Assembly: GCA_024401355.1 (NCBI GenBank)
Contig: JAKSLF010000011.1
Location: 22,363-86,362 of the forward strand
DNA length: 64,000 bases
Reading direction: 5' to 3'
Source: Bacteroidales bacterium
GTDB lineage: Bacteria > Bacteroidota > Bacteroidia > Bacteroidales > Marinilabiliaceae
Shown one piece after another: positions 47,982 through 60,249 of this stretch. A model generated the notes under the pieces. It saw only the letters and a program-made list of their open reading frames with translations, was not told the origin of the DNA and did not search any database. How positions within the stretch are numbered: position 1 is the first letter of the stretch; each line of letters opens with the position of its first letter. A program made the position numbers and the translations under genes.

Positions 47982-48013
47982 CAAAGATAAATAAAAAAAA
48001 CGTACAAACCAAA
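47982..48013 (-). promoter_or_regulatory. Promoter for the dehydratase activase gene
   Basis: On the minus strand TTTG (48013-48010), a 20-bp spacer and TATCTTTG (47989-47982), about 85 bp before the ATG. Confidence 0.7.
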
Positions 48014-48026
48014 TCCAAACTCCCTA

Positions 48027-49340
48027 CTAACTATCACTCACCATCCGCCTCCTAAACTCCTCCGCAAAGGCATATAGCGGAATGCACTCTAACCAGTCTT
48101 GCTTTATATACTTTTTCATCGAAAGACGGATCGCTGTCAAATCAGCATTTTTAGAAATAAATGTCTTTAACGATTTGGCATGAACATTCTCCTCTGCCTT
48201 GACTTCAACAGGATAAACCCTGCTTCCCATCTGAACTACAAAGTCAAGCTCTATCGTGGAGTTATCTACACTATGATAGTAGCATGGCACGCCCGCCGAC
48301 ATCATCTGGCTACATACAAACAATTCCGTAAATGCTCCTTTATATTCCGAAAAGATGCCATCACCAACTAGCACCGACGATGCCGGAGCATCCACCATGG
48401 CTCCCATCAAACCAACATCTAGCAGAAACAGCTTGAATGACGAAATGTCCTCATAAAATTTCAACGGCATTTTTACGGCATTCGTCCTGCTTATCTTATA
48501 AACAAGTCCAGCATCAACAAGCCATTGTATAGCCACTTCAAATTCCGAAGCCCTGGCACTCTTCTTTACCGCACCATAAATGAATTTCTTATTGTCTTTT
48601 GCCAATTGAGAAGGTATGCTACCCCAAACCATCTGGATTCTCGGCACTTGACTCAACGGAGCATGCTTCGAGAAGTCTCTCGAATAATCTTCTAGGATAC
48701 TTTTCTGACGCTTTCTAACCTCATTAAGCCCCAGGTTTTGCACGTATGCCAATACCGCCGACGGCATACCTCCTACATAATAATACTGACGAAGCAAATC
48801 GGTCAATTCTGTCGAAAGCACGTTTATAACGTCCCACTCGCCATTCCTCAGCTCTTCCACTATACGCTCCCTTCCAAGCGCTATGAGAAATTCTTCAAAC
48901 GACATCGGATAAAGCCTAAGCATATCTACTTTACCCACCGGAAACGATACTGCATCATGAAGCGATATACCAAGCAAAGAACCCGCTACTGCAACATGAA
49001 TCTCAGGAGCATCCTCACAGAAATATTTAAGAGACTCCAACGCTTGGGGACAATCTTGTATCTCATCTAAAATCACAAGAGTATCATTGGGCGTGATGTC
49101 TACTTGGGCTATTGCCGACAATCCTCTAAGCATCTTATCAACACCTCCACCCTCCTCAAACACTTCCCGAGCCTGTTTTTGACGGTCTAGACTGAAGAAT
49201 GCAACTTTATCATACTCTCGCTTGGCAAACTCAACCAAAAGGAATGTCTTACCGACCTGGCGAGCGCCATTCATTATCAATGGCTTGCGATTTATAGATT
49301 TCTTCCACTCTATCAATGCTTTATATAACTCTCTTTTCAT
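48027..49340 (-). CDS. AAA/DUF4143 ATPase no. 1
   Basis: A 437-residue ATPase of the archaeal-type AAA_14 plus DUF4143 family. Walker A is MNGARQVGKTFLLVEF (about residue 23), Walker B TLVILDEIQDCPQALE, sensor region AVAGSLLGISL, then PMSFEEFLIALG and YYVGGMPSAVLAYV. The C-terminal nuclease-like fold contains DNSTIELDFVVQMGSRVYPVEVKAE, the D-x(n)-E-x-K pattern of PD-(D/E)XK enzymes. Function is unknown; proposed roles include defence, toxin-antitoxin-like or DNA-processing. The ATG at 49340 (MKRELYKA) is chosen because further upstream the frame only translates a 33-bp tandem repeat. The promoter and repeat array lie directly upstream. A paralogue is at 56823-58154. Confidence 0.9.
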   Translation of the reverse strand: MKRELYKALIEWKKSINRKPLIMNGARQVGKTFLLVEFAKREYDKVAFFSLDRQKQAREVFEEGGGVDKMLRGLSAIAQVDITPNDTLVILDEIQDCPQALESLKYFCEDAPEIHVAVAGSLLGISLHDAVSFPVGKVDMLRLYPMSFEEFLIALGRERIVEELRNGEWDVINVLSTELTDLLRQYYYVGGMPSAVLAYVQNLGLNEVRKRQKSILEDYSRDFSKHAPLSQVPRIQMVWGSIPSQLAKDNKKFIYGAVKKSARASEFEVAIQWLVDAGLVYKISRTNAVKMPLKFYEDISSFKLFLLDVGLMGAMVDAPASSVLVGDGIFSEYKGAFTELFVCSQMMSAGVPCYYHSVDNSTIELDFVVQMGSRVYPVEVKAEENVHAKSLKTFISKNADLTAIRLSMKKYIKQDWLECIPLYAFAEEFRRRMVSDS

Positions 49341-49346
49341 TTGCTT

Positions 49347-49495
49347 TACACTTTTTCCGACGACAAACTGACGCAAATATACACTTTTTCTGACGACAAA
49401 ACAACACTTCACTACACTTTTTCCGACGACAAAACCGCTTTCCACTACACTTTTTCCGACGAATCTCGACCACAAACCCACACTTTCCCCAACCA
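49347..49495 (-). repeat. 33-bp-period direct-repeat array upstream of ATPase no. 1
   Basis: A 21-bp conserved unit (plus strand TACACTTTTTCCGACGACAA with a final A) starts at 49347, 49380, 49413 and 49446, exactly 33 bp apart; the fourth copy keeps 17 bp. A degenerate fifth copy is in phase at 49479. The 12-bp spacers differ. The unit nearest the gene lies in the 5-prime leader, the second fills the space between -33 and -7. Because 33 is a multiple of three, the frame through it reads FVVGKSV every 11 residues. It looks like an operator or iteron array rather than coding. Confidence 0.9.
49374..49404 (-). promoter_or_regulatory. Promoter for ATPase no. 1, inside the repeat array
   Basis: On the minus strand TTG (49404-49402), a 20-bp spacer and TATATTTG (49381-49374). 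The second repeat copy (49380-49400) occupies the spacer, and the first copy (49347-49367) begins at about the transcription start. Confidence 0.7.
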
Positions 49496-49548
49496 ATCCT
49501 CACAAAAAACTCCCCCAGCCATCACCAGCCAGAGGAGTCCTATCCGTA

Positions 49549-49570
49549 GAGACGTGGCATGCCGCGTCTC
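49549..49570. repeat. 22-bp palindrome downstream of the BspA-like gene
   Basis: GAGACG-t-GGCATGCC-g-CGTCTC is a near-perfect palindrome. Similar GAGACG...CGTCTC elements are scattered in Bacteroidales intergenic DNA. It may act as a terminator or a REP-like element; no T-run follows on the minus strand. Confidence 0.6.
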
Positions 49571-49572
49571 CT

Positions 49573-49600
49573 AATTTTCAATTCTCAATTCTCAATTATC
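49573..49600 (-). repeat. Four-unit heptamer array at the end of the BspA-like gene
   Basis: On the minus strand AATTGAT, AATTGAG, AATTGAG, AATTGAA. The array starts in the BspA-like stop codon (TGA at 49592-49594 is formed by the repeat itself). It matches the array at 2413-2440 in unit, copy number and position at a gene's 3-prime end. Confidence 0.8.
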
Positions 49601-52600
49601 AATTAACTTTCGTCCCATAATGTCATATTTCACTCCGTCACGGATGATCACTACTCTACCACCCTCGATGGTCTTGATGACTCTCTGACTATCGCCAGAC
49701 ACTTGTCCGACACCTGTCGGAATAAGTTTAGTGCCTTCAGCCGTACGAGTGTCAGTGTGGCCACAGTTGTTGTCGCAATATGCGGTCTCTGTGCCGTCAA
49801 CACCTACTTCAGCATCATTGTTATAGGTATATGTAGTGAAGAGGTGCTCGCTTTCAGTAGTCAAACCAGCCGCTACGTATGTGTCGTATAGCGCACAAGG
49901 CACGACATACGTCTTGTCTGTACCAAATTGGTCAATCAGTATGCTTGGATCTACCATGTCTGTATTGACATATTCAAGGTTATCGCACATAAAAAAGACG
50001 CCCCATTCCATACTTGTTATACTATTAGGTATAGTGACATTTTTTAAACCTTGACAATAACAAAAAACACCATATTCTAAGCTCGTCACCCCATCTGGTA
50101 TAGCAATGGACGTCAAGCTCTTACAGCTACTGAAAGCCATCGTTCCAATACTCGTCACACCATCTGGGATAGTTACGGAGGTCAGACTGTTACAGCCATT
50201 GAACACGCTTTCTTCAATAATCGTCACGCCATCAGGGATATTAATGGAAGTCAGGCTACTGCAGCCCCCAAAGGCACCGCTTCCAATGCTCGTCACGCCA
50301 TCAGGAATATTGATTGAAGTCAAGCCTCTGCAACCAGAGAAAGCAAAGTTTCCAATACTTGTCACGTCATCTGGAATTATTGTATTCTTACATCCAACAA
50401 TTAGAGTATTTGTCGAAGTCTCGATTATTGCATTGCAATTGTCTCGCGAATTAAAGTACTGGTTGTCTGCATCTACAGAGATGGAAGACAGACCACTGCA
50501 GTCACTGAAAGCAGAGCCTCCAATGCTCGTCACACCATCAGGGATGGTGATGGATGTCAGGCCGCTGCAGCCATAGAAAGCATAGCTTGGAATATACTCT
50601 ACAGATTCTCCTATATTCACTGTAGTAAGTGAAGAACACCCATCGAAAACATATCCATAACCTCCATAATCATTCACCATAGGGGCACATTTCTCTGCAT
50701 TGAAGTTTAATGTAGTTAGGCTGTTGCAGCCATAGAAAGCGTATTCTCCAATGTTCGTCACACTGCTAGGGATAGTGATGGATGTCAGACTGCTGCAGCC
50801 AGAGAAAGCCCTGCGTCCAATGCTCGTCACGCCATCAGGGATGTTAATGGATGTCAGGCCGCTGCAGCCCTCGAAAGCATCATCTCCAATGCTCGTCACA
50901 CTATTAGGGATGGTAACGGAAGTCAAGCCGCTGCAGCCGTTAAAAGCATAGTTCCCAATGCTCGTCACGCCATCAGGAATAACAACATCAGTCACCTCCT
51001 TACCATCAATATACAGATGCTCTGCATAGTATAGTGGATTACTACTAAAACTGGAGAAGTTTATCTTTACCCAATCCCCAATAGTCCCACCATAGTCCAC
51101 TCTTGTCAGACCGCTGCAGACGTAAAAAGCGACGCCTCCAATGCTCGTCACACTATTAGGGATGGTAACGGAAGCCAAGCCGTTGCAGCCATCGAAAGCC
51201 CAGCGTCCAATGCTCGTTACGCCATCTTTTATAACAACCGACTTTATATCATCTTTTGATGAATACCATGGATAATTCTCAATCTCCCAATAGTCATAGT
51301 TCCTCGTAATTGTCAGCACTCCATCATCAGACAACGACCATCCCTTGTCTATCCAGTCTTTCTCAAGAATCTCTACACTCGCCTTAGAATCAGCAAAATG
51401 TCTGCCACATACATTACATGTATATCCTTCCACATGACCGTCGGCCTCATCTGTCGCAGCTACCGCATCAGACCAAACGAGGTCGTGACTGGCAGGAATC
51501 ATCCAACTGTCAGCGGCAATCTCAGCAGTTGCCTCAGCATCGCTGTAATGCTTGCCACAAACACTGCAAGTGTAGTATTCTGAGTTGCCATCAGTTGTAC
51601 AAGTCTTCCCCACTGCATCATGTTTCACAAGGCTATGACCCTTGGCAGGAATTACCCAACTATTTTCAGCAATCTCAGTTGTCATTTCAGCATCTGCGAA
51701 ATGCTTACCACTAAATGTGCAGGTATAACCCTCAATATGACCATTAATCGTACATGTCTCTGCCAATGCATCTGACCATACAAGATTATGCTCACTTTCT
51801 ATCGTCAATCCAGCAGACACATACGTGTCACGCAATGTCTCATACTTCGTACATGGCACAATATACTTCTTGTTAGTTCCCAATGCACTCTTCAATATGC
51901 TTGGATCATCCATATCAGTATGAACATTCTTAAGACTACACCATTCGAAAGCGCAGTATCCAATACTCGTCACACTGTTAGGAATAGTAATGGAAGTCAA
52001 ACTACTGCAACCATTGAAAGCAAATTCTCCAATGCTGGTCACGCCATCAGGGATAGTGATGGTTGTCAAGCCTCTGCATTTATAGAACGCATAGTTTCCA
52101 ATGCTCGTCACGCCATCAGGAATAACAACATCAGTCACCTCCTTACCATCAATATATAGATGCTCCGCATAGTATAGTGGATTGCTATGTTCATTGGAGT
52201 AGTTTATCTTCACCCAATCCCCAATAGTTCCACCATAGTCCACTCTTGTCAGGCCGCTGCAGTCATAGAAAGCGGAGTTTCCAATGCTCGTCACGCCATC
52301 AGGGATAGTGATGGTTGTCAAGCCTCTGCAGCCATAGAAAGCGCGGTATCCAATGCTCGTCACGCTGTTAGGAATAGTTATGGAAGTCAAGCCGCTGCAT
52401 TCATAGAAAGCGTAGTCTCCAATGCTCGTCACGCCATCAGGGATTACAACATCTGTCACTTCCTCGCCGTTGATATACAGATGACCAGCATAGTAAAGTG
52501 GATTACTAGAAGGTCGGACGAAGTTTATCTTCACCCAATCTCCAATTGTTCCTCTGTAATCCACTCTTGTCAGGCCGCTGCAGTCATTGAAAGCGGAGTT

Positions 52601-53446
52601 TCCAATGCTCGTCACGCCACTGCCAATAGTTACGGATGTCAATCTGCGGCAGTAAGAGAAAGCATATTCTCCAATGCTCGTCACGCCATCAGGGATGTTG
52701 ATGGATGTCAGGCCGCTGCAACCAGAGAAAGCAGAGTTTCCAATGCTGGTCACGCCATCAGGGATATTAATGGAAGTCAGGCTACTGCAGCCCCCAAAGG
52801 CCGAGTGTCCAATGCTTGTCACGCCATCAGGGATGTTGATGGATGTCAGGCCGCTGCAACCATAGAAAGCATCCTCTCCTATGCTCGTCAACTTGCTATT
52901 CTCAGGGATGGTGATGCTCGTCAGGCTGCTGCATTTATAGAAAGCATAGTTTCCGATGCTGGTCACACCATCAGGGATGTTGATGGATGTCAGGCCGCTG
53001 CAACCACAGAAAGCAGAGTTTCCGATGCTGGTCACGCCATCAGGGATGGTGATGGAGGTCAGGCGACTGCAACCATAGAAAGCATCCACTCCTATGCTCG
53101 TCAACTTGCTATTCTCAGGGATGGTGATGGAAGTCAGGCGACTGCAAAATTCGAAAGCATAGGGTCCAATACTCGTCACACCATCAGGGATGGTGATGGA
53201 TGTCAGGTCACAGCCCATGAAAGCGTAGCTTTCAATTTCCGTCACATCGTATGTCTTGCCCTCATACGTCACCGATGCAGGTATCACAATATCACCTTCA
53301 TACTTAGAGTTATTTGAAGTGACAGAGATAGTGTTGGCGATGCTGGTTGCTTTATATTTGATGCCATCAACGACGAAAGTAAAAGTAACATGAGCAAAAG
53401 TAGGAGTGCAAGTTAATGCAAATATAATTGCGATTAATATTCTCAT
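49592..53446 (-). CDS. BspA-like surface protein with leucine-rich repeats
   Basis: A 1284-residue secreted protein. The signal peptide (LIAIIFALTCTPTFA) is followed by about 30 BspA-type LRRs of about 23 residues (pattern IPDGVTSIGxxAFxGCSxLTS), in two blocks. A middle Cys-rich domain near residues 560-700 holds two or three repeats of the form YTCxVCGKHxxDAEA, resembling a zinc-ribbon-like or Listeria-type repeat. A second LRR block follows, and the C-terminus (VKYDIMGRKLIDN) lacks a typical type IX secretion tail. BspA relatives bind fibronectin, fibrinogen or epithelial cells. The DNA is a tandem repeat prone to recombination, which makes assembly uncertain here. Confidence 0.9.
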   Translation of the reverse strand: MRILIAIIFALTCTPTFAHVTFTFVVDGIKYKATSIANTISVTSNNSKYEGDIVIPASVTYEGKTYDVTEIESYAFMGCDLTSITIPDGVTSIGPYAFEFCSRLTSITIPENSKLTSIGVDAFYGCSRLTSITIPDGVTSIGNSAFCGCSGLTSINIPDGVTSIGNYAFYKCSSLTSITIPENSKLTSIGEDAFYGCSGLTSINIPDGVTSIGHSAFGGCSSLTSINIPDGVTSIGNSAFSGCSGLTSINIPDGVTSIGEYAFSYCRRLTSVTIGSGVTSIGNSAFNDCSGLTRVDYRGTIGDWVKINFVRPSSNPLYYAGHLYINGEEVTDVVIPDGVTSIGDYAFYECSGLTSITIPNSVTSIGYRAFYGCRGLTTITIPDGVTSIGNSAFYDCSGLTRVDYGGTIGDWVKINYSNEHSNPLYYAEHLYIDGKEVTDVVIPDGVTSIGNYAFYKCRGLTTITIPDGVTSIGEFAFNGCSSLTSITIPNSVTSIGYCAFEWCSLKNVHTDMDDPSILKSALGTNKKYIVPCTKYETLRDTYVSAGLTIESEHNLVWSDALAETCTINGHIEGYTCTFSGKHFADAEMTTEIAENSWVIPAKGHSLVKHDAVGKTCTTDGNSEYYTCSVCGKHYSDAEATAEIAADSWMIPASHDLVWSDAVAATDEADGHVEGYTCNVCGRHFADSKASVEILEKDWIDKGWSLSDDGVLTITRNYDYWEIENYPWYSSKDDIKSVVIKDGVTSIGRWAFDGCNGLASVTIPNSVTSIGGVAFYVCSGLTRVDYGGTIGDWVKINFSSFSSNPLYYAEHLYIDGKEVTDVVIPDGVTSIGNYAFNGCSGLTSVTIPNSVTSIGDDAFEGCSGLTSINIPDGVTSIGRRAFSGCSSLTSITIPSSVTNIGEYAFYGCNSLTTLNFNAEKCAPMVNDYGGYGYVFDGCSSLTTVNIGESVEYIPSYAFYGCSGLTSITIPDGVTSIGGSAFSDCSGLSSISVDADNQYFNSRDNCNAIIETSTNTLIVGCKNTIIPDDVTSIGNFAFSGCRGLTSINIPDGVTSIGSGAFGGCSSLTSINIPDGVTIIEESVFNGCNSLTSVTIPDGVTSIGTMAFSSCKSLTSIAIPDGVTSLEYGVFCYCQGLKNVTIPNSITSMEWGVFFMCDNLEYVNTDMVDPSILIDQFGTDKTYVVPCALYDTYVAAGLTTESEHLFTTYTYNNDAEVGVDGTETAYCDNNCGHTDTRTAEGTKLIPTGVGQVSGDSQRVIKTIEGGRVVIIRDGVKYDIMGRKLIDN

Positions 53447-53457
53447 ATTGTAAATAT

Positions 53458-54363
53458 TTAGTCTTCAGAATATGGCATAACTAATATCGAACTTTGATTG
53501 TCATCTAATGGTAAATACAACTTGTTCTCTTGTTCACTACAAGATTGATCTGTGTACTCCACCTTATACAATAATATAGGGAAACTTCCATTGACTAGTT
53601 TTTCCAATACTTTGTATTTCCCATCACCAATCACAGAGTTATGATTATTTCTGTATATTATGATACACTTTATACATCCATCTATGTTCAAAAACAGGTC
53701 TTTATCAGTTTTTCGTTCTGCCAAAATCCGATATTCGTTTTCGTATGACCAATCCTCGGATTTATGAAAAAATACTCTACGACAATATTCGGCACATTTC
53801 TCTTCGTTGCCAATAAAGGATGACAACTCGTCCGAATTGACCTTAATGAGGTTAGTGGTGTCGTATTTTATCATTCCATCCACATGAAATATTTGCTTGG
53901 CTTTTTGCTCTTCTATTTTTTCTTTAATTTTATTCTTGTCAAAAACAAAGCATACTCCTTCACCGTTTTTGGAATAATTGCCCCACAAAGGCAAACAATT
54001 ATACATTCTGTAATTGAATGATTTTTTATAAGATGGGTCTACAGAAAAGCATAATTGACACAAGTGCGATACAAAATTCTTAGCTGTTTTAGTTGCATCA
54101 TTAGCTTTTCGCTCGGCTTCTTCGTCCGGAAAAAATGATCTAGTATAATTGTACGGACTACTATTGATGACGTATTTATCCCTTTCAGTAATGTCATTCA
54201 TTTGGGTCAATGGACCATATTTTAATGACATGCTTCCTAACACTATTACCGCTGTTTCGTAGCTAGAAAACTTATACAAATTATCTTTACTATCGAAAAT
54301 GCCAGCAATATGTTTCGCAGCATGCTCTTTATCCAAACGATTCAAATATGAAATATTACTCAT
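53458..54363 (-). CDS. DUF2971 family protein
   Basis: A 301-residue cytoplasmic protein without signal peptide. The family pattern is visible in LPLWGNYSKNGEGVCFVFD (about residue 130) and KSEDWSYENEYRILAE (about residue 210). An N-terminal LYKFSSYET is also typical. The function is unknown; DUF2971 genes are often found near defence or mobile genes. The ATG at 54363 (MSNISYLN) is preferred over an upstream non-canonical start. It sits 11 bp upstream of the BspA-like gene on the same strand, so the two may be co-transcribed, though they have no known link. Confidence 0.82.
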   Translation of the reverse strand: MSNISYLNRLDKEHAAKHIAGIFDSKDNLYKFSSYETAVIVLGSMSLKYGPLTQMNDITERDKYVINSSPYNYTRSFFPDEEAERKANDATKTAKNFVSHLCQLCFSVDPSYKKSFNYRMYNCLPLWGNYSKNGEGVCFVFDKNKIKEKIEEQKAKQIFHVDGMIKYDTTNLIKVNSDELSSFIGNEEKCAEYCRRVFFHKSEDWSYENEYRILAERKTDKDLFLNIDGCIKCIIIYRNNHNSVIGDGKYKVLEKLVNGSFPILLYKVEYTDQSCSEQENKLYLPLDDNQSSILVMPYSED

Positions 54364-54550
54364 AAATGTTATTCTCAAAAAATTTCCCCTTCATTCACGC
54401 AGAAGGTTTCTCGGCATTGCCCAAAAACAATGCATTTCACACTCTTGAAAATTAAAACTGACCTTTCTGTTTTTTTAATTTCCTCCTTCCGCCCAGCCCC
54501 CACAAGCAGATTTATTAATAGTTTTTTCATTACCCATCCCACACAAACAC

Positions 54551-54835
54551 AAAAAACGCAGGAGCCCCACCTCTGTTCATCTGTATCTGGGGCCCTCGGA
54601 CGGCCTTATCGGCAGACGAAACAGAATGACTCCTGCGTGTGCAGATATATTGCCACTCCGACGATGTGCAGCAGGACATTTGCGCCCCACGCACACCTCG
54701 GAATAGATATAATCTACCCGCAGCATCACTTCTGCTTTGTCATTGGCCGATGAAAATTTCCGAGGTTTTCAGATACCATCTGACAAGCATCATGTTGACG
54801 CTTTTATGTATTTATATGTCGTTCGTTTCCACGAA
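54551..54835 (-). ncRNA. Candidate structured small RNA with own promoter and terminator
   Basis: About 285 nt on the minus strand without a coding frame. A Bacteroidetes -7 box (TATCTTTG, 54849-54842) stands just upstream of the proposed 5-prime end. Stems: ACCTCGGAA/TTCCGAGGT (9 bp, 54695-54703 with 54758-54766), TGTGC/GCACA (54665-54669 with 54690-54694), GCCCCA/TGGGGC (54564-54569 with 54588-54593), and a closing 9-bp ACGCAGGAG/CTCCTGCGT (54556-54564 with 54630-54638) followed by TTTTTT. The layout of a phylum-type promoter plus terminator is like that described for Bacteroidales-1 RNA; I cannot confirm identity. The neighbouring 54379-54550 holds only a weak 51-codon frame. Confidence 0.6.
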
Positions 54836-54860
54836 ACACGGCAAAGATAACAATAATTTA
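54827..54860 (-). repeat. Promoter cassette copy 1 (upstream of the candidate small RNA)
   Basis: A 34-bp segment containing the TATCTTTG -7 box is nearly identical to sequences at 55830-55861 and 56426-56457. Confidence 0.8.
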
Positions 54861-54892
54861 CAAATGAGAGAGATTTTTACAAAGAAATGCTA

Positions 54893-55105
54893 TCACACTT
54901 CCGACGTGATATATGATAACACATATCGTGGCGACTGAAAAAACAATCCAGAATCAGGATCTGACAATAATTCATACGTTCTCGAACCATACACTTTTGA
55001 CATCGCATCTTCAACTGTATAGTTATTTTCTTCTACTAATATTTGAATAATCTTCGCTGTCAGCTCAGTCTTCAAATACACAAATTCTGATTGAGAGATA
55101 TTCAT
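54893..55105 (-). CDS. Small protein, third gene of the DUF3990 module
   Basis: A 70-residue protein, mostly helical, with the pattern SQSEFVYLKTELTAKIIQIL and TYELLSDPDSGLFFQSPRYV. Small proteins of this kind commonly accompany DUF3990/DUF3791 genes in Bacteroidales. Its ATG overlaps the DUF3990 stop by 4 bp. It has no signal peptide or catalytic motif. A role as an antidote or regulator of DUF3990 is inference. Confidence 0.75.
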   Translation of the reverse strand: MNISQSEFVYLKTELTAKIIQILVEENNYTVEDAMSKVYGSRTYELLSDPDSGLFFQSPRYVLSYITSEV

Positions 55106-55578
55106 ATCTTTCGCAACAATTTAATTGCACGTTCTGTTCCAAAAAAATATTGATAAGTTATACCCTTCATGTATTTCAAGTTCTGAAGGAATTGCTCTAA
55201 TGTAATATCTCCTGCTTCATATTTCCCTATCTGTACTCCGACTCTATCATTAGCTATCGGTCCGTATACAATATCATAATCATGTGCCGGAGTCGATAGT
55301 TTGTTGTTTCTGTTCAAAAATATAAATTCAGCCCATTCTTGAGTATAGGCATCAAATAATTTGGTCTTATATTCACCTGAAAACAAACACTTTTCGTCAA
55401 ATTCAAAAGTATTCATCACAGCTACGCCTCCTTCAGTTATTGCCTTGAATTCACCCATTCTCATAGCCTGAGCCTTGTCTTCTGACAAATAGAAGCCCTT
55501 GCCAAAGTCCTTGTTGGGTCTTGATATATTCAAATCTATCGCTTTTATATCTATCGTAGAACCATGGTACAGTATCAT
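55102..55578 (-). CDS. DUF3990 family protein (ADP-ribosyltransferase-like fold)
   Basis: A 158-residue protein. It begins MILYHGSTIDIKAIDL; the following DFGKGFYLSEDKAQAMRM (about residue 25) and HDYDIVYGPIANDRVG (about residue 105) are the DUF3990 signature. The H-G-S and G-F-Y-L-S elements resemble the NAD-binding H-Y-[E/Q] ADP-ribosyltransferase fold. Enzymatic action on protein or nucleic acid is predicted but not shown. It overlaps both neighbours by 4 bp (ATGA), so the three genes form one translationally coupled unit, as expected for a toxin-antitoxin-like or regulatory module. Confidence 0.85.
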   Translation of the reverse strand: MILYHGSTIDIKAIDLNISRPNKDFGKGFYLSEDKAQAMRMGEFKAITEGGVAVMNTFEFDEKCLFSGEYKTKLFDAYTQEWAEFIFLNRNNKLSTPAHDYDIVYGPIANDRVGVQIGKYEAGDITLEQFLQNLKYMKGITYQYFFGTERAIKLLRKI

Positions 55579-55796
55579 TTCAACTCTCCTCCTTTCCTTT
55601 GACAGAAAATAGTCAGACTTCTTATCATCTCTTCAATAGGCTGAGTATGCATAACATCGTAATACTCATATGTAAGCCTTATAGCACCATACCTATTGAG
55701 ATACCTGAATGCCTCGGCTTCAGATATAGAATAGTGTTTGGCAAAATGGTATACCATTACCACCAAATATTCTGATATGTCTCTTATGCTATACAT
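55575..55796 (-). CDS. DUF3791 family protein, first gene of the DUF3990 module
   Basis: A 73-residue protein: RDISEYLVVMVYHFAKHY, EAEAFRYLNRYGAIRL and the C-terminal IFCQRKGGELK are typical of DUF3791. It has no signal peptide. Its 5-prime end and promoter are duplicated at 56359-56490. Small DUF3791 proteins regularly precede DUF3990; an antitoxin role is inference. Confidence 0.82.
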   Translation of the reverse strand: MYSIRDISEYLVVMVYHFAKHYSISEAEAFRYLNRYGAIRLTYEYYDVMHTQPIEEMIRSLTIFCQRKGGELK

Positions 55797-55894
55797 TTTT
55801 ACCTATTTAATATTCACATTGCTCCGATCTTCCACGAAACACGGCAAAGATAACAATAATTAACTAACAATATACTCCTTCCCAATATCTTTTC
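55762..55894 (-). repeat. 133-bp duplicated segment, intact copy
   Basis: It contains the first 12 codons of the DUF3791 gene, its leader and its promoter (-7 box TATCTTTG at 55852-55845). It is about 95 percent identical to 56359-56490, in the same orientation, 597 bp away. Confidence 0.9.
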
Positions 55895-55926
55895 TGCAAA
55901 AGACAGCAGCATTTTGAATATATCAA

Positions 55927-55957
55927 TTGACTAAAACAGAAAAAATCATTACCTTTG
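55927..55957 (+). promoter_or_regulatory. Promoter for the antitoxin gene
   Basis: TTG (55927-55929), a 20-bp spacer and TACCTTTG (55950-55957). The leader before the ATG at 56029 is about 65 nt. Confidence 0.7.
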
Positions 55958-56028
55958 TCCCCAAGGGTGCTAGTCGCTCATATACATCCTAATAGATAGA
56001 CAAGATCAAAACAAAGCAGCAAAATAAC

Positions 56029-56304
56029 ATGTGCACTTTTAATTTAAAAATGAACGATGCTTTGGTGGAAGCAGTTCGTCCTACTTTCAAGACCAAGGAG
56101 GCTGTCAATGAATGGTTGCAGAATCAGGCTACTCTTTTGCTGCAGCAGATTGTTGCGCGTCAGAACTCAAAAGAGGCTAATGATACGACATCACCAGCAA
56201 AAGAACACTCTGCATGGGTTCAGTCTATGGCAAAATATCGTCGCCTTGCTCCAATGGACGACAAGACTGCAATGTTGGATTCTTTGGATGAACGTTTCAA
56301 ATGA
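56029..56304 (+). CDS. Type II antitoxin-like protein, partner of a truncated PIN toxin
   Basis: A 91-residue protein. FNLKMNDALVEAVRPTFKTK and EAVNEWLQNQATLLLQQIV form the short DNA-binding and dimerisation part common in Bacteroidales antitoxins that precede PIN toxins. The C-terminal WVQSMAKYRR and ALDSLDERFK-like end would bind the toxin. Its stop overlaps the start of the PIN frame (ATGA, 56301-56304), the usual coupling. The toxin is cut short (see next feature), so the antitoxin is probably an orphan. Confidence 0.85.
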   Translation: MCTFNLKMNDALVEAVRPTFKTKEAVNEWLQNQATLLLQQIVARQNSKEANDTTSPAKEHSAWVQSMAKYRRLAPMDDKTAMLDSLDERFK

Positions 56305-56423
56305 AAGTTTTAATTGACACGAACGTACTTCTCGACTTCTATTGTGAGCGAGATTACTACCAAATATTCCGATACATCTCTTATGCTATAATTTTTACCT
56401 ATTTAATATTCACATTGCTCTGA
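56301..56423 (+). pseudogene. Truncated PIN-domain toxin (VapC-like), only the first 20 residues remain
   Basis: The frame reads MKVLIDTNVLLDFYCERDYY, which holds the first conserved Asp (IDTNVLLD) of PIN ribonucleases. From 56359 on it is replaced by a copy of the DUF3791 5-prime region, giving a 20-codon junk tail before a stop at 56421-56423. The other acidic active-site residues are absent, so no toxin is made. Confidence 0.9.
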
Positions 56424-56490
56424 TCTTCCACGAATCACGGCAAAGACAACAATAATTAACTAACAATATACTCCTTCCCAATATCTTTTC
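56359..56490 (-). repeat. 132-bp duplicated segment, decayed copy
   Basis: A copy of 55762-55894. A one-base loss destroys the DUF3791 start codon (ATACAT to ATA-AT), and the -7 box has changed to TGTCTTTG. It is joined directly to the truncated PIN gene. Confidence 0.9.
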
Positions 56491-56822
56491 AACAAACCCC
56501 TCCCAAAATCAACTTTGACCATTTGACCGTGACCATTCCACGTTTTCTGCATTATAGTCCAAAAAGCTTATCTTCTTATTAGTTAAAACGCCAATCCCCC
56601 ATGTTAATTTCAGCACCTCTCCTTTAATAACATTTAATTATCTTTCACAATTAAAGCCTCCTCGACTTCCGACACTTTTCTCGGAGGGATAACGGTACCT
56701 TACCGTACCCTTACCATACCTTTTTGACTCCATTAAAAACGACATCTCTTTAACTCACTTTAACAATGGTCATGGTCAAAATTGCAAAACACAATTTCAG
56801 CCTTTTTTTAACAATTGATTAA
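56491..56822. other. 332-bp intergenic region with repeated TACC and TGACC motifs
   Basis: No coding frame. TTGACCATTTGACCGTGACC (56515-56534) and TGGTCATGGTCAA (56767-56779) are inverted relative to each other, about 240 bp apart. An 11-bp-period tandem (CGGTACCTTAC, CGTACCCTTAC, CATACCTTTTT) covers about 56693-56725. A weak hairpin (AAATTG/CAATTT) lies near 56780-56800, and could terminate ATPase no. 2. Confidence 0.55.
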
Positions 56823-58154
56823 CTAATACTCCACCTCTTTTAAGTATCTTTTCAGCAAAAAAGCACAAAAGTACGGGAATGTAATGATACCTTTGCTCTC
56901 TCCAATATTTGCATTAGCCAACTTGATGCCAACACTAATGTCTCCATACTTGTCCGATTCTATCAATGTCTTCAGCGATTTTGCACGACCATTATTCGAT
57001 TTTACTTCTACAGGCACCAGCGATTTCTTGGTCCTTACAAAGAAGTCCTGCTCTAGAGTAGAATCTTCACGCTTATAATAATAAAGGTCATAACCACTTT
57101 TGACAAGTGACTCGGCAACAATATTTTCATATAAAGCTCCCTTGTAGACACCAAAGTTCCTGTTTGCTCTCAAGTCTTCCTGCGACTCTTCGTCCAAACT
57201 TGCTATCAGCAGTCCCGAGTCTGCAAAATATATCTTGTATTTCAACTCGTCATAGTTGCCACGCAAGGGCAGTTCGGGAAAATTCATGCAATAGCAAACG
57301 TTTATTATCCCGGCATCGCTGAGCCATTCTATGCATCCCCAATAGTCCTTGAAACGGGCGCCCGTCGCCACTTTTGATATTTGGAATTTCTTGTTGTCTT
57401 TCGAAAGCTGCACAGGTATGTGGTTAAACACGTTCATGATGCGTGCCTGCTCTATGCCACTGGCATATTTTCTTACATCTTCTTTGTAGTCCAACAATAT
57501 CTGGTTCTGCATCTGCAATACGCCTTCAAAACTATTCTTCTCTATGTAACTTGCCACAATAGCTGGCATTCCACCCAATATACAGTAATCATTGAAAAAT
57601 TGAGAATAGACTTGCATCTGAGTATCCGAGAACGGCTTTTGACTACGCATGTTGTCCAGCATTTCGTCTGCCGCATCTCTACGGCCTTTTGCCCAGAGAA
57701 ATTCCTCAAAATCCATCGAGTGCATTATGTAGTCTTCTTTATAGCCAACGCTATTGCTCTCTATCATCTTGTAGTTTATACCCAATAGCGATCCACTGCA
57801 TATCACATCATAACGACCATCTATCGAGAAAAACTTAAGCGATGTGGCTATGTCAGGAAACGACTGCACTTCGTCAAAAACTATCAACGTATCACCTGGA
57901 ATAAAATTCACCTTGTCGTCTATCAGCGATATATTCTTGGTTATTTCATCAGCCCCATATCCATCACGAGTTATTGTTCTAAATGCTGGAGATGAAATAA
58001 AGTTGATAACAATGCAACTTTTGTATGTCGAACCAAATTTACAGATAGACTCAGTTTTCCCTATCTGTCGAGCTCCCTTTACAATAAGTGGCTTCTTTTT
58101 CTCAGAAACTTTCCACGCTCTGAGATACCGGTCTATTTTTCGCTCTAAATACAT
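56823..58154 (-). CDS. AAA/DUF4143 ATPase no. 2
   Basis: A 443-residue paralogue of the ATPase at 48027-49340. Walker A is VKGARQIGKTESICKFG (about residue 26), Walker B TLIVFDEVQSFPDIAT, then ICSGSLLGINYK, SMDFEEFLWAKG and YCILGGMPAIVASYI. The C-terminal nuclease-like fold has EDSTLEQDFFVRTKKSLVPVEVKSN. The start at 58154 (MYLERKID) is chosen because a -7 box lies at 58180-58173, which rules out an upstream start at 58175. It has the same gene order and an upstream 33-bp-period array as its paralogue. The function is unknown. Confidence 0.9.
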   Translation of the reverse strand: MYLERKIDRYLRAWKVSEKKKPLIVKGARQIGKTESICKFGSTYKSCIVINFISSPAFRTITRDGYGADEITKNISLIDDKVNFIPGDTLIVFDEVQSFPDIATSLKFFSIDGRYDVICSGSLLGINYKMIESNSVGYKEDYIMHSMDFEEFLWAKGRRDAADEMLDNMRSQKPFSDTQMQVYSQFFNDYCILGGMPAIVASYIEKNSFEGVLQMQNQILLDYKEDVRKYASGIEQARIMNVFNHIPVQLSKDNKKFQISKVATGARFKDYWGCIEWLSDAGIINVCYCMNFPELPLRGNYDELKYKIYFADSGLLIASLDEESQEDLRANRNFGVYKGALYENIVAESLVKSGYDLYYYKREDSTLEQDFFVRTKKSLVPVEVKSNNGRAKSLKTLIESDKYGDISVGIKLANANIGESKGIITFPYFCAFLLKRYLKEVEY

Positions 58155-58172
58155 GGCTTTTTCTCTTTTGCG

Positions 58173-58202
58173 CAAAGTTACTTATTTTCAACACAATAAC
58201 AA
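58173..58202 (-). promoter_or_regulatory. Promoter for ATPase no. 2, overlapping the repeat array
   Basis: On the minus strand TTG (58202-58200), a 19-bp spacer and TAACTTTG (58180-58173). The -33 TTG is the edge of repeat copy 1. The leader is about 12 nt. Confidence 0.75.
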
Positions 58203-58281
58203 AAAGATGAGCGAATTTTCCCCACTCCACCACAAAAAGATGAGCGAAATTTTCCCATTCCACCACAAAAAGATGAGCGAA
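58200..58281 (-). repeat. 33-bp-period direct-repeat array upstream of ATPase no. 2
   Basis: Three perfect 16-bp units (plus strand CAAAAAGATGAGCGAA) start at 58200, 58233 and 58266, exactly 33 bp apart. The spacers between them are similar (CCAC-rich). The first unit begins at the promoter -33 box. The unit sequence differs from that of the array at 49347-49495 apart from a shared AAAAAG core, but period and placement agree. Confidence 0.92.
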
Positions 58282-58418
58282 TCCATCTCCTCATCCACCC
58301 ATTTTTAACACCCAAAACACGTACTCTCAACCTACCCACACCCTACCCTTACCTTATTCTATATTTAGTCTCCGAATGTTTTTTCAGCATATTCCTTTAT
58401 AATATACCAAATTTTCAT

Positions 58419-58426
58419 TACCTTTG
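58419..58426 (+). promoter_or_regulatory. Candidate -7 box for pfp
   Basis: TACCTTTG, 58 bp before the pfp ATG; a TTTA occurs at the -33 position. The rest of 58282-58483 shows no gene. Confidence 0.5.
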
Positions 58427-58483
58427 CATGCCTTTCGGCAAAATACACTTAAACAAAAGTAAAACACAAAATATTTTTTCAAG

Positions 58484-60124
58484 ATGAACAAAAGTGCACT
58501 TCAGATTGAAAGAAGCAAGTATCAGCCTAAGATTCCTGCTTCTATCAACGGCGCTACAAAGCTCGTTGAAGGCAAGGCTACTGAATCTGTAGCCGACCAG
58601 GCCGACATCAAGAAACTCTTCCCTAACACTTACGGTATGCCTATCGTTACTTTCGAAAACGGTGCTGGCAACGCTACTGCTAAGGAGTTCAATGTAGGTA
58701 TCATCCTCTCTGGCGGTCAGGCTCCTGGCGGTCACAATGTCGTTTCTGGTATCTTCGACGGCATCAAGAAGATCAACGCTAACAACAAGCTCTACGGCTT
58801 CCTCGGCGGTCCTTCTGGCCTCGTTGACCACAAGTACATCGAACTCACTTCTGACATCATCGACGAATACCGCAACACTGGTGGTTTCGATATCATCGGC
58901 TCTGGCCGTACTAAGCTCGAAGAGGTTGAGCAGTTCGATAAGGGTATCGAAATCTGCAACAAGCTCGGCATCAAGGCTGTCATCATCATCGGTGGCGACG
59001 ACTCTAACACCAACGCTTGCGTTCTCGCTGAATACTACCTCCAGAAGAAGACTGGCATCCAGGTTATCGGCTGCCCTAAGACTATCGACGGCGACCTCAA
59101 GAACGAGATGATCGAGACTTCTTTCGGTTTCGATACTGCTACTAAGGTCTACTCTGAGGTTATCGGTAACATTGAGCGCGATGCCAACTCTGCTAAGAAG
59201 TACTGGCACTTCATCAAGCTCATGGGCCGTTCGGCTTCTCACGTTACTCTCGAGGCTGCTCTCCAGACTCAGCCTAACGTCACTCTCATCGGTGAGGAAG
59301 TTGAGGCTAAGAACCAGACTCTCGACGACGTCGTAACTTATATCGCTCAGGCTGTTGCCAACCGCGCTGCTAAGGGTCTCAACTTCGGTACTGTCCTCGT
59401 TCCAGAAGGTCTTATCGAGTTCATCCCTGCTATCAAGAAGCTCATCGCTGAGCTCAACGATATGCTCGCTGCTAACCAGGCTGAGTTCGACACTGTAGCT
59501 GCTGACGAGAAGATCAACTACGTTGTTAGCAAGCTCTCTAAGGAGAATGCTGAACTCTTCAAGTCTCTTCCTACTACCGTTTCTACTCAGCTCGCTCTCG
59601 AGCGCGACCCACACGGCAACGTACAGGTTTCTCTCATCGAGACTGAACAGCTCCTCGCTGAAATGGTTGCTAAGAAGCTCGCTGCTTGGAAGAAGGAAGG
59701 TAAGTTCGTTGGTAAGTTCGCTACACAGCACCACTTCTTCGGTTACGAAGGTCGTTGCGCAGCTCCTTCTAACTTCGACGCTGACTACTGCTACTCTCTC
59801 GGTCGCGTAGCTGCTCTCCTCATCGCTTCTGGTAAGACTGGTTACATGTCATCTGTTCGTAACACTACTAAGCCTGCTGCTGAATGGCTCGCTGGTGGTA
59901 TTCCTATCACTGCTATGATGAACATGGAGAAGCGTAACGGTAAGATGAAGCCTGTTATCCAGAAGGCTCTCGTTAAGCTCGACGGCGGTCCATTCAAGTA
60001 CTTCGCTTCTAAGCGCGACGAGTGGGCTATCGAGACTGCTTACGTTTACCCAGGCCCAATTCAGTACTTCGGCCCAGCTGAGGTTGCTGACCAGCCTACT
60101 AAGACTCTTATTCTCGAGCACTAA
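58484..60124 (+). CDS. pfp: Diphosphate-fructose-6-phosphate 1-phosphotransferase
   Basis: A reversible, pyrophosphate-dependent phosphofructokinase of glycolysis. The 546-residue protein is the long PFP type. [15 protein letters not shown] is the first phosphate-binding motif, [11 protein letters not shown] (about residue 168) contains the GGDD pyrophosphate signature in place of GGDG, and [10 protein letters not shown] (about 203) replaces the ATP-type [18 protein letters not shown] and [14 protein letters not shown] follow. Codon use is strongly biased (many CTC, GCT, AAG), as in highly expressed genes. Confidence 0.95.
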
Positions 60125-60152
60125 TATCGTCTTTCCGACATATTAAATACTG

Positions 60153-60175
60153 AGCCCGCCGTCCTTCGGCGGGCT
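60153..60175 (+). terminator. Rho-independent terminator after pfp
   Basis: A 9-bp GC-rich stem AGCCCGCCG...CGGCGGGCT with a 5-nt loop, followed by TTTTT. Confidence 0.9.
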
Positions 60176-60249
60176 TTTTACCTATATTATATAACTTTCT
60201 TTTCCCAGTCTCGTATCACAATACAGATTCATTTCACATCAAAAACAGA

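What the first reader, a model, noticed from the sequence alone, without database searches (positions are those of the whole stretch)
58200..58281. Second, different array with the same 33-bp period before the paralogous ATPase
Three perfect 16-bp units start at 58200, 58233 and 58266. The first unit supplies the -33 promoter box. The unit has a different sequence from that at 49347 but the same period and place. Two independent arrays with equal spacing are unlikely by chance and suggest that each ATPase pairs with its own DNA unit.
Basis: partly seen in the sequence, partly recalled or inferred. Interest (0 to 1): 0.8.

Follow-up and report, generated by a model that had tools for sequence, protein, structure and literature searches.

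The report
ATPase genes with private DNA addresses
A very common, little-studied family of bacterial ATPase-nuclease genes, proposed to be anti-phage defences, carries in the promoter of most of its genes a row of short repeats spaced about three DNA turns apart, and the spelling of the repeat changes together with amino acids next to the protein's nuclease motif, as if each protein reads its own address.

Summary
The array is real: a perfect 17-bp unit at 58199, 58232 and 58265 (period 33), over the promoter of an AAA_14+DUF4143 gene (56823-58154, minus). It is a family-wide feature: 92 of 117 such genes in the genus, and relatives in several phyla, have a promoter array. Among 189 arrays the best period is 32-34 bp in 170, otherwise 21-24, 39-44 or 52. 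Units are kept, spacers drift. The two window units occur essentially only at their own promoters. Unit sharing rises with protein identity. In the clade of the other window ATPase, one base of the unit co-varies with residue 387, just after the PD-(D/E)XK ExK motif: Q with G/C, R/K with T (8 concordant, 0 discordant independent pairs; combined hold-outs p=0.0025). Gene plus array behaves as one cassette: in 24 of 34 related pairs homology stops near the stop codon and the outermost unit. PADLOC calls both proteins PDC-S01, an abundant defence candidate; I saw no experimental test of it. Best reading: the protein binds its own array through its nuclease-like domain and controls, probably represses, its own promoter. 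Binding, repression and defence are inferred. My literature searches found no description of the arrays.

The parts
56823..58154 (-). ATPase 2: AAA_14 + DUF4143 protein, 443 aa (PADLOC PDC-S01)
   Evidence: Pfam DUF4143 E 5e-34 and AAA_14 E 3.2e-19; PADLOC PDC-S01 E 4.4e-154
58199..58215 (-). array 2, unit nearest the gene; supplies the -33-like TTTG
   Evidence: exact repeat; promoter-like spacing of 19 nt
58232..58248 (-). array 2, middle unit
   Evidence: exact repeat
58265..58281 (-). array 2, outermost unit; homology to the G012 relative ends at 58281
   Evidence: exact repeat; homology boundary
58173..58180 (-). -7-like box TAACTTTG of ATPase 2
   Evidence: TANNTTTG match 26 nt before the ATG
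56985..56987 (-). codon of R390 of ATPase 2, the position equivalent to residue 387 of ATPase 1; H in the 94% identical relative
   Evidence: codon checked; difference list; GRAKSL/GHAKSL segments
48027..49340 (-). ATPase 1: paralogous AAA_14 + DUF4143 protein, 437 aa (PADLOC PDC-S01)
   Evidence: Pfam DUF4143 E 3.2e-32, AAA_14 E 3.4e-27; PADLOC PDC-S01 E 2.1e-173
49347..49462 (-). array 1, four units (49347-49363, 49380-49396, 49413-49429, 49446-49462), TACACTTTTTCCGACGA on the + strand, one unit with one mismatch
   Evidence: TRF; pattern search of the assembly
48180..48182 (-). codon of H387 of ATPase 1, the residue that co-varies with base 2 of the unit word across the clade
   Evidence: calibrated mutual information; contingency table; codon checked
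48174..48176 (-). codon of K389 of ATPase 1, weaker co-variation with bases 3-4
   Evidence: codon checked

Best explanation
Most AAA_14-DUF4143 ATPase genes are paired with a private operator: two to about eleven direct repeats over their own core promoter, usually at a period of three helical turns. I infer that the protein reads the variable half of its unit with its PD-(D/E)XK-like DUF4143 domain (residue 387, less surely 389, just after the ExK motif), assembles along one face of the DNA, probably through AAA-AAA contacts, and shuts down its own transcription. Gene and array travel as one cassette, so specificity is kept on transfer, and several paralogs with different addresses can sit in one genome. 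Shown computationally: arrays, quantised spacing, position over the promoter, privacy of the two window units, base-residue co-variation, cassette boundaries. Inferred: binding, oligomer, repression, and any anti-phage role.
For: Arrays (self-lag score >=14) in 92 of 117 DUF4143 genes of the genus against 14 of 311 control genes; at lag 32-34, 75 of 117 against 1 of 311, and that one is this same array seen from the divergent PFK gene. Quantised period. In named genomes 52 of 78 score >=14, all at 32 or 33. Between copies, held-out unit columns are 87% identical, spacers 50% (100 arrays). The last unit ends within 100 nt of the start codon in 94 of 98 arrays, and TANNTTTG occurs in the 95 nt before the start in 78 of 98, against 10.5 expected from dinucleotide shuffles and 87 of 311 control genes; the nearest unit lies over or next to the box in 78 of 80. 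The two window units have only own-promoter copies plus one 2-mismatch hit each. Unit sharing follows protein identity. Base 2 with residue 387 is the top pair under free and within-clade permutation (z 12.5 and 11.9; largest in 60 permuted sets 8.2 and 7.6). Independent Q against R/K pairs: 8 concordant, 0 discordant, 1 unchanged. Hold-outs: R/K gives T in 8 of 11 and 9 of 11, Q gives T in 1 of 4 and 0 of 4 (combined Fisher p 0.0025). The half-site lies on either strand relative to the gene (86 and 11 of 97, some of the 11 weak; clearer cases), which points to double-stranded DNA. Array 2 and its relative L032 differ at one unit base (C to G) in all three copies, and R390H is among 28 residue changes.
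Against: No binding or expression data. The co-variation was found in the clade of ATPase 1; the one close relative of ATPase 2 changes another base of the unit, not base 2. The first coupling scores (22 of 97 rows dropped by hand, and a site model that favoured T and C at bases 3-4) were inflated: with automatic acceptance and a model blind to the word the top score fell to 7.9 while one of five permuted sets reached 10.3. In the calibrated run other pairs also beat the permuted maximum (free: F151, M408, N24, L35, V67, S357, V189; within clades: N24, M312, K389), and in the spacer control one pair did (K248, 9.4 against 8.0). Hold-out 1 alone is weak (p 0.033 for G/C, 0.24 for T), and the hold-outs are not corrected for relatedness within them. 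H387 does not predict a base. 25 of 117 genus genes gave no array at the threshold. Position over the promoter fits activation as well as repression. The ExK-motif residues are nearly invariant, which a pure repressor would not need.
Confidence: 0.7

Rival explanations
1. The array is one end of a minimal mobile element: the ATPase-nuclease is the mobilising enzyme and the units are its end-recognition sites; position over the promoter is secondary.
For: Homology between relatives in different surroundings ends at the stop codon and the outermost unit: window against the G012 contig is exactly 56823-58281, and 24 of 34 pairs (75-99.9% DNA identity, at least 100 nt of flank; pairs share members, so they are not independent) have both boundaries within 40 nt. 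Ten activase loci of other genus genomes (L370-L379; 11 other genomes had a strong match) show no DNA similarity to the ATPase 1 gene within about 1.5 kb of the activase. ExK motif intact.
Against: I identified no second end, inverted repeat, target duplication or empty site (no dedicated search for inverted repeats or target duplications was run). A one-sided array over the promoter is unusual for a transposon. At 75-85% identity, divergence of non-coding flanks also trims alignments, and the G012 contig holds only 109 nt beyond the array.
Confidence: 0.15
2. A separate host transcription factor, not the ATPase, binds the arrays.
For: Direct repeats over promoters are typical of regulators; nothing here shows who binds.
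Against: The arrays of the ten DUF4143 genes of this genome have different units; the two window units occur only at their own promoters apart from one weak hit each; a base co-varies with a residue of the ATPase itself; arrays accompany the gene in several phyla and on some plasmids.
Confidence: 0.07
3. The repeats act as RNA (CRISPR-like guides or a structured leader).
For: Regular repeats and spacers next to a nuclease-like gene.
Against: Short units and spacers, the spacers still 50% identical between copies; no Rfam match at gathering score in 48000-60200; the half-site lies on either strand relative to the gene; the period follows DNA helical turns.
Confidence: 0.03
4. Neutral tandem duplication by slippage.
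For: A few arrays are near-perfect multi-copy tandems (L021, L044, L070), and some control genes also have upstream tandem repeats (14 of 311 at score >=14, the strongest a period-44 array at L122).
Against: Units kept while spacers drift; the same period in several phyla; among controls the only array at lag 32-34 is the finding's own.
Confidence: 0.02

Closest known systems
PADLOC PDC-S01 (phage defence candidate, single gene)
   Same: Both window proteins match PDC-S01 models over nearly their full length. PMC12988326 (passages read) ranks PDC-S01 fourth most common defence across prokaryotes and describes an ATPase domain fused to a member of the PD-(D/E)XK superfamily.
   Different: Promoter arrays and base-residue co-variation: 'promoter', 'operator' and 'autoregulat' have no occurrence in the held main text of that paper; I read passages of three papers and listings of the rest, and saw no mention of arrays.
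2fna_A (conserved hypothetical protein) and 2qen_A (Walker-type ATPase); their archaeal origin and the name MNS clade of STAND NTPases are recalled
   Same: A profile of 115 family members hits 2fna over positions 22-278 (E 3.5e-11) and 2qen over 8-128 (E 1.3e-6).
   Different: The best-scoring hits of that profile were generic AAA+ modules (midasin, E 2.6e-14), so membership is not established. Single-sequence searches found no solved family member (0 hits, and one chance-level hit at E 0.81).
ParR/parC and TubR/tubC partition sites, Rep iterons (recalled, not tested)
   Same: A protein binds iterated direct repeats just upstream of its own gene, at once operator and assembly scaffold.
   Different: Different protein families as recalled; here up to 22 DUF4143 matches in one genome, and the co-varying residue lies in a nuclease-like domain.
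CRISPR arrays
   Same: Regular repeats next to a nuclease-like gene.
   Different: Short, drifting spacers, both orientations, no cas gene among the window proteins scanned.

Membership tests
PDC-S01 | match to the PADLOC PDC-S01 models | tested here: met
   E 4.4e-154 and 2.1e-173, near full length
PDC-S01 | protects against phage | not testable with these tools
AAA_14 / DUF4143 (Pfam) | both domains above the gathering score | tested here: met
PD-(D/E)XK nuclease fold | acidic residues and ExK motif conserved | tested here: met
   133 of 133 aligned relatives keep E379 and K381, 132 of 133 keep E339 and D366; reading these as catalytic rests on general knowledge of the fold
PD-(D/E)XK nuclease fold | fold confirmed by structure | not tested
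   structure prediction switched off
STAND NTPase, MNS clade | AAA core followed by winged helix, as recalled for 2fna | tested here: inconclusive
   profile hit to 2fna over 22-278, below generic AAA+ hits; winged helix not verified
CRISPR array | identical repeats with unrelated unique spacers of similar length, cas genes nearby | tested here: not met
   spacers 50% identical between copies; no Rfam match; window neighbours scanned are not cas
Insertion sequence / transposon | two recognised ends and a target duplication | tested here: inconclusive
   one-sided array, sharp homology limits, no empty site found
Partition system (parC/tubC type) | stabilises a replicon | not tested
   59 plasmid records carry relatives of ATPase 1; no stability data

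The most novel reading that the evidence does not exclude
The array is a leash and a sensor: an intact nuclease-ATPase is parked as a helically phased filament on its own promoter, silencing itself, and is released or over-produced when a phage strips, degrades or replicates the host DNA. Each cassette carries a different address word, so many such guards can live in one cell without cross-talk. The reading head would be the nuclease domain itself, with a readable code (387 Q for G/C, R/K for T).
Probability: 0.2. Interest if true: 0.95.

Novelty: new variant of a known kind. Interest (0 to 1): 0.85.

Why it matters
PDC-S01 is reported as the fourth most common defence across prokaryotes (29,494 in Bacteria and 9,986 in Archaea; PMC12988326, passages) and the most frequent individual defence locus in rumen genomes (10,358; PMC13356809, passages), and I saw no mechanism for it in what I read. 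A private DNA address beside each gene, with a residue-level code, gives the family concrete, testable biochemistry: a ligand, a binding site, a candidate specificity residue and a regulation hypothesis. It would also mean that a PD-(D/E)XK domain with an intact motif serves as the sequence reader.

Tried and rejected
CRISPR-like or RNA reading: rejected (no Rfam match; both orientations; drifting spacers).

Decoy arrays in viruses: a tandem pattern of the ATPase 2 unit gave 0 exact matches in the viral collection. A pattern scan found 17 ATPase relatives there (the scan sees only relatives that hold its peptide patterns). Of the 20 viral, phage and plasmid genes that could be called (22 loci given), 9 had an array score >=14.

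Empty site: surroundings of PFK and of the activase gene are rearranged in relatives, so no clean empty site was found.

Within-genome orthogonality: too few close paralogs in one genome to test (2 pairs at 60-75% identity, none above).

A first iterative motif model drifted and was discarded. The simple 13-mer unit comparison showed little sharing below 60% identity; one search replaced it. The first mutual-information scores were replaced by a calibrated version.

Bacillota promoters: -10-like matches near the last unit are too frequent to interpret.

Literature: the paper search for DUF4143 (1 paper), AAA_14/PF13173/PF13635 (571, swamped by unrelated hits; PF numbers again as whole words, 1 paper), MNS clade with STAND and ATPase (1), COG1373 (7), PDC-S01 (3), guilt-by-embedding/PDC/defence (1,150, 15 listed), direct repeats with AAA and nuclease terms (0). 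I read passages of PMC12988326, PMC13356809 and PMC4406477; of the rest only the listings. Subscription papers and preprints are not in that library.

Full report
OBSERVATION. The perfect unit is 17 bp, ACAAAAAGATGAGCGAA, at 58199, 58232 and 58265, period 33 by TRF. The other window array, 49347-49462, has four units of TACACTTTTTCCGACGA (one with one mismatch), also at period 33. Thirty dinucleotide shuffles of the window gave no 14-mer triplet at equal spacing. Both arrays lie directly upstream of minus-strand genes for proteins with Pfam AAA_14 and DUF4143.

NOT TWO BUT A FAMILY. The assembly has ten DUF4143 genes; 8 of the 10 have an upstream self-alignment score >=14, with units that differ from gene to gene. 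In the genus, 14 of 15 genomes have such genes, up to 22 matches per genome. I fetched 118 of the 137 matches; a gene was called in 117. A self-alignment scan of the 400 bp before the Walker A motif scored >=14 in 92 of 117, against 14 of 311 control genes from the window and 20 other 20-kb stretches. At lag 32-34 the counts are 75 of 117 and 1 of 311, and the one control is this same array seen from the divergent PFK gene. The strongest control array is a period-44 one at L122. The 99.9% quantile of 2340 dinucleotide shuffles was 13.

QUANTISED SPACING. Over 261 genes, 189 arrays pass the threshold; best lags, of 20-60 scanned, are 32 (59), 33 (107), 34 (4), 21-24 (6), 39-44 (10) and 52 (3), nothing else. 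These lie close to two, three, four and five turns of DNA. Two of the three at 52 (L060, L066) are really mixed arrays with spacing 33-19-33, as is L062; I cannot explain that spacing. A scan of named genomes gave 80 relatives of ATPase 1 (capped list); 78 could be called and 52 of these score >=14, all at 32 or 33. Sorted by me from record titles they include 38 Bacteroidota genes (31 with arrays), 29 Bacillota (13), 3 Spirochaetota (2), 2 Fibrobacterota (0 by this score, 1 by anchored units) and single examples of other groups. The isolates Catonella morbi ATCC 51271 (score 57) and Lachnoanaerobaculum sp. OBRC5-5 (33) are among the positives, so contaminated MAGs are not the sole cause. One Vibrio and one Acinetobacter plasmid also carry period-32 arrays, just at the threshold (14 and 15).

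UNITS ARE CONSTRAINED AND SIT ON THE PROMOTER. In 100 arrays with an independently accepted third copy, held-out unit columns are 87% identical between copies, spacer columns 50%. In the genus and family set the last unit ends within 100 nt of the start codon in 94 of 98 arrays (median 46 nt). The Bacteroidota -7 consensus TANNTTTG (recalled) occurs in the 95 nt before the start in 78 of 98, against 10.5 expected from shuffles and 87 of 311 control genes. Where a box was found between array and start, the nearest unit lies between 58 nt upstream and 8 nt downstream of it in 78 of 80. The two window units have no other close copy in the assembly except one 2-mismatch hit each (the reversed-pattern controls gave 2 and 1).

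CO-VARIATION WITH THE PROTEIN. Sharing of a unit between two genes of the genus, above the 99% level of unrelated pairs, is 28 of 367 at 30-40% protein identity, 21 of 109 at 40-50%, 35 of 115 at 50-60%, 29 of 43 at 60-75%, 10 of 11 at 75-90%, 14 of 14 above 90%. At 80-96% identity 13-mer units match in 91% of 11 pairs and spacers in 18%. In the clade of ATPase 1 the unit is a variable word followed by AAAA(A/G)TGT: 97 of 104 relatives have at least two such sites at about 31-34 bp (a skipped period was allowed), 86 on the gene strand and 11 on the other, some of these weak. I asked which residues follow the word. The first scan (75 rows after dropping 22 of 97 by hand, with a site model that favoured T and C at bases 3-4 but not any base at 2) put residues 387 and 389 on top. 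Its scores were not calibrated: with automatic acceptance and sites chosen blind to the word bases (90 rows) the top score fell to 7.9 and one of five permuted sets reached 10.3. The calibrated run (83 de-duplicated rows) keeps base 2 with residue 387 as the highest pair under free permutation (z 12.5, largest of 60 permuted sets 8.2) and within-clade permutation (11.9 against 7.6). Residue 24 with base 5 (9.6), M312 with base 5 (9.0) and K389 with base 3 (8.7) also exceed the within-clade maximum, and seven further columns exceed the free one or recur there. In the spacer control one pair exceeded its own maximum (9.4 against 8.0), so single weaker exceedances should not be trusted.

THE CODE. 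In the training rows R or K at 387 goes with T at base 2 in 46 of 48, Q with G or C in 19 of 19; H is mixed. With automatic acceptance (90 of 133 rows, first hold-out included) R/K gives T in 50 of 54 and Q gives G/C in 19 of 20. On a tree built without the segment, 9 phylogenetically independent Q against R/K pairs give 8 concordant, 0 discordant, 1 unchanged; counting H and Y with Q, 14 pairs give 10, 0, 3 and 1 other. Two hold-out sets, same site rules, sequences >=95% identical removed: R/K gives T in 8 of 11 and Q gives T in 1 of 4; R/K gives T in 9 of 11 and Q gives T in 0 of 4, of which 2 are G/C. Combined p = 0.0025, not corrected for relatedness. Several misses (L437, L456, L457) look like one-base register shifts, a post hoc remark. 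Residue 387 lies eight residues after E379 and six after K381 of the ExK motif, which are invariant in 133 aligned relatives. For the finding's own protein, the 94% identical relative in another species differs by 28 residues, one of them R390H at the equivalent position, and its unit differs by one base (C to G) in all three copies. That base is not base 2, which is T in both, so this pair shows concerted change of the copies, not the 387 rule.

CASSETTE. The homology between the window and that relative runs from 56823 to 58281, exactly stop codon to outermost unit, at 85.8% identity; beyond it no match was found in 4749 nt on one side and the 109 nt available on the other. Of 34 pairs with 75-99.9% DNA identity and at least 100 nt of flank, 24 have both boundaries within 40 nt of array end and stop; pairs share members. 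Of the ten pairs above 95%, two stop at both limits, three run on only upstream, and five run more than 40 nt past both (two of these by only 45 nt on the array side). Gene and array therefore move or are kept together. How is unknown: I found no empty site.

WHAT IT IS. PADLOC names both proteins PDC-S01, a single-gene phage defence candidate, and two neighbours also match PADLOC candidate models (PDC-S31 at 53458-54378, PDC-M13B at 55102-55578). A profile of 115 members hits generic AAA+ modules best (midasin) and the solved protein 2fna over positions 22-278. The passages I read rank PDC-S01 fourth among defences in prokaryotes, with validation pending for most such candidates (PMC12988326), and first among individual loci in rumen genomes (PMC13356809).

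MECHANISM. The simplest account is an autoregulated, self-addressed DNA-binding ATPase: the DUF4143 domain reads the word, the AAA domains stack at three-turn spacing, and the promoter is closed. The constant half AAAA(A/G)TGT would be bound by a conserved part of the protein. The intact motif argues that the array is more than an operator; parking or restraining an active nuclease on it is the bold version. No experiment supports either yet.

VERDICT. Observation confirmed; interpretation supported at the level of co-variation; binding, repression and biological role open. Known family, new and testable feature.

Noticed in passing
window 53458-54378 (-) and 55102-55578 (-): DUF2971 protein (PADLOC PDC-S31, partial match) and DUF3990 protein (PADLOC PDC-M13B; weak ART-PolyVal hit below cut-off) between the two ATPases: the 48-58 kb stretch is a cluster of defence candidates.
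   Followed up: partly
L122, about 8690-8840: Between divergent genes for an outer membrane efflux protein and a DUF4249 protein lies an array of period 44 (GGTTCGATAAAGTA... / GCGAATGTTCGACATTTT...), the strongest array among the control genes. A similar stretch occurs upstream of the DUF4143 gene in L003.
   Followed up: partly
L060, L062, L066 upstream regions: Units spaced 33-19-33 instead of a constant period.
   Followed up: no
L021 upstream region: Eleven copies of a 23-bp unit before a DUF4143 gene: a two-turn version of the array.
   Followed up: no
upstream regions of L113, L114, L116-L118 and L061: In subfamilies with shorter proteins the units are palindromic or nearly so (for example TCCCTCAATGAGGGA), suggesting dimeric reading.
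   Followed up: no
window 49269-49271 (-), residue 24 of ATPase 1: The residue just before the Walker A loop co-varies with bases 5-6 of the unit (z 9.6 and 6.1 within clades); a second contact or lineage noise.
   Followed up: partly
window 49592-53446 (-): Large leucine-rich, BspA-like protein (name recalled) with 69-bp tandem repeats.
   Followed up: no
Bacteroides and Parabacteroides plasmids, e.g. NZ_OY725773.1 8765-10045: A 57-58% identical ATPase recurs in the 25 plasmid records listed; in the one opened (L389) no array passed the threshold.
   Followed up: partly
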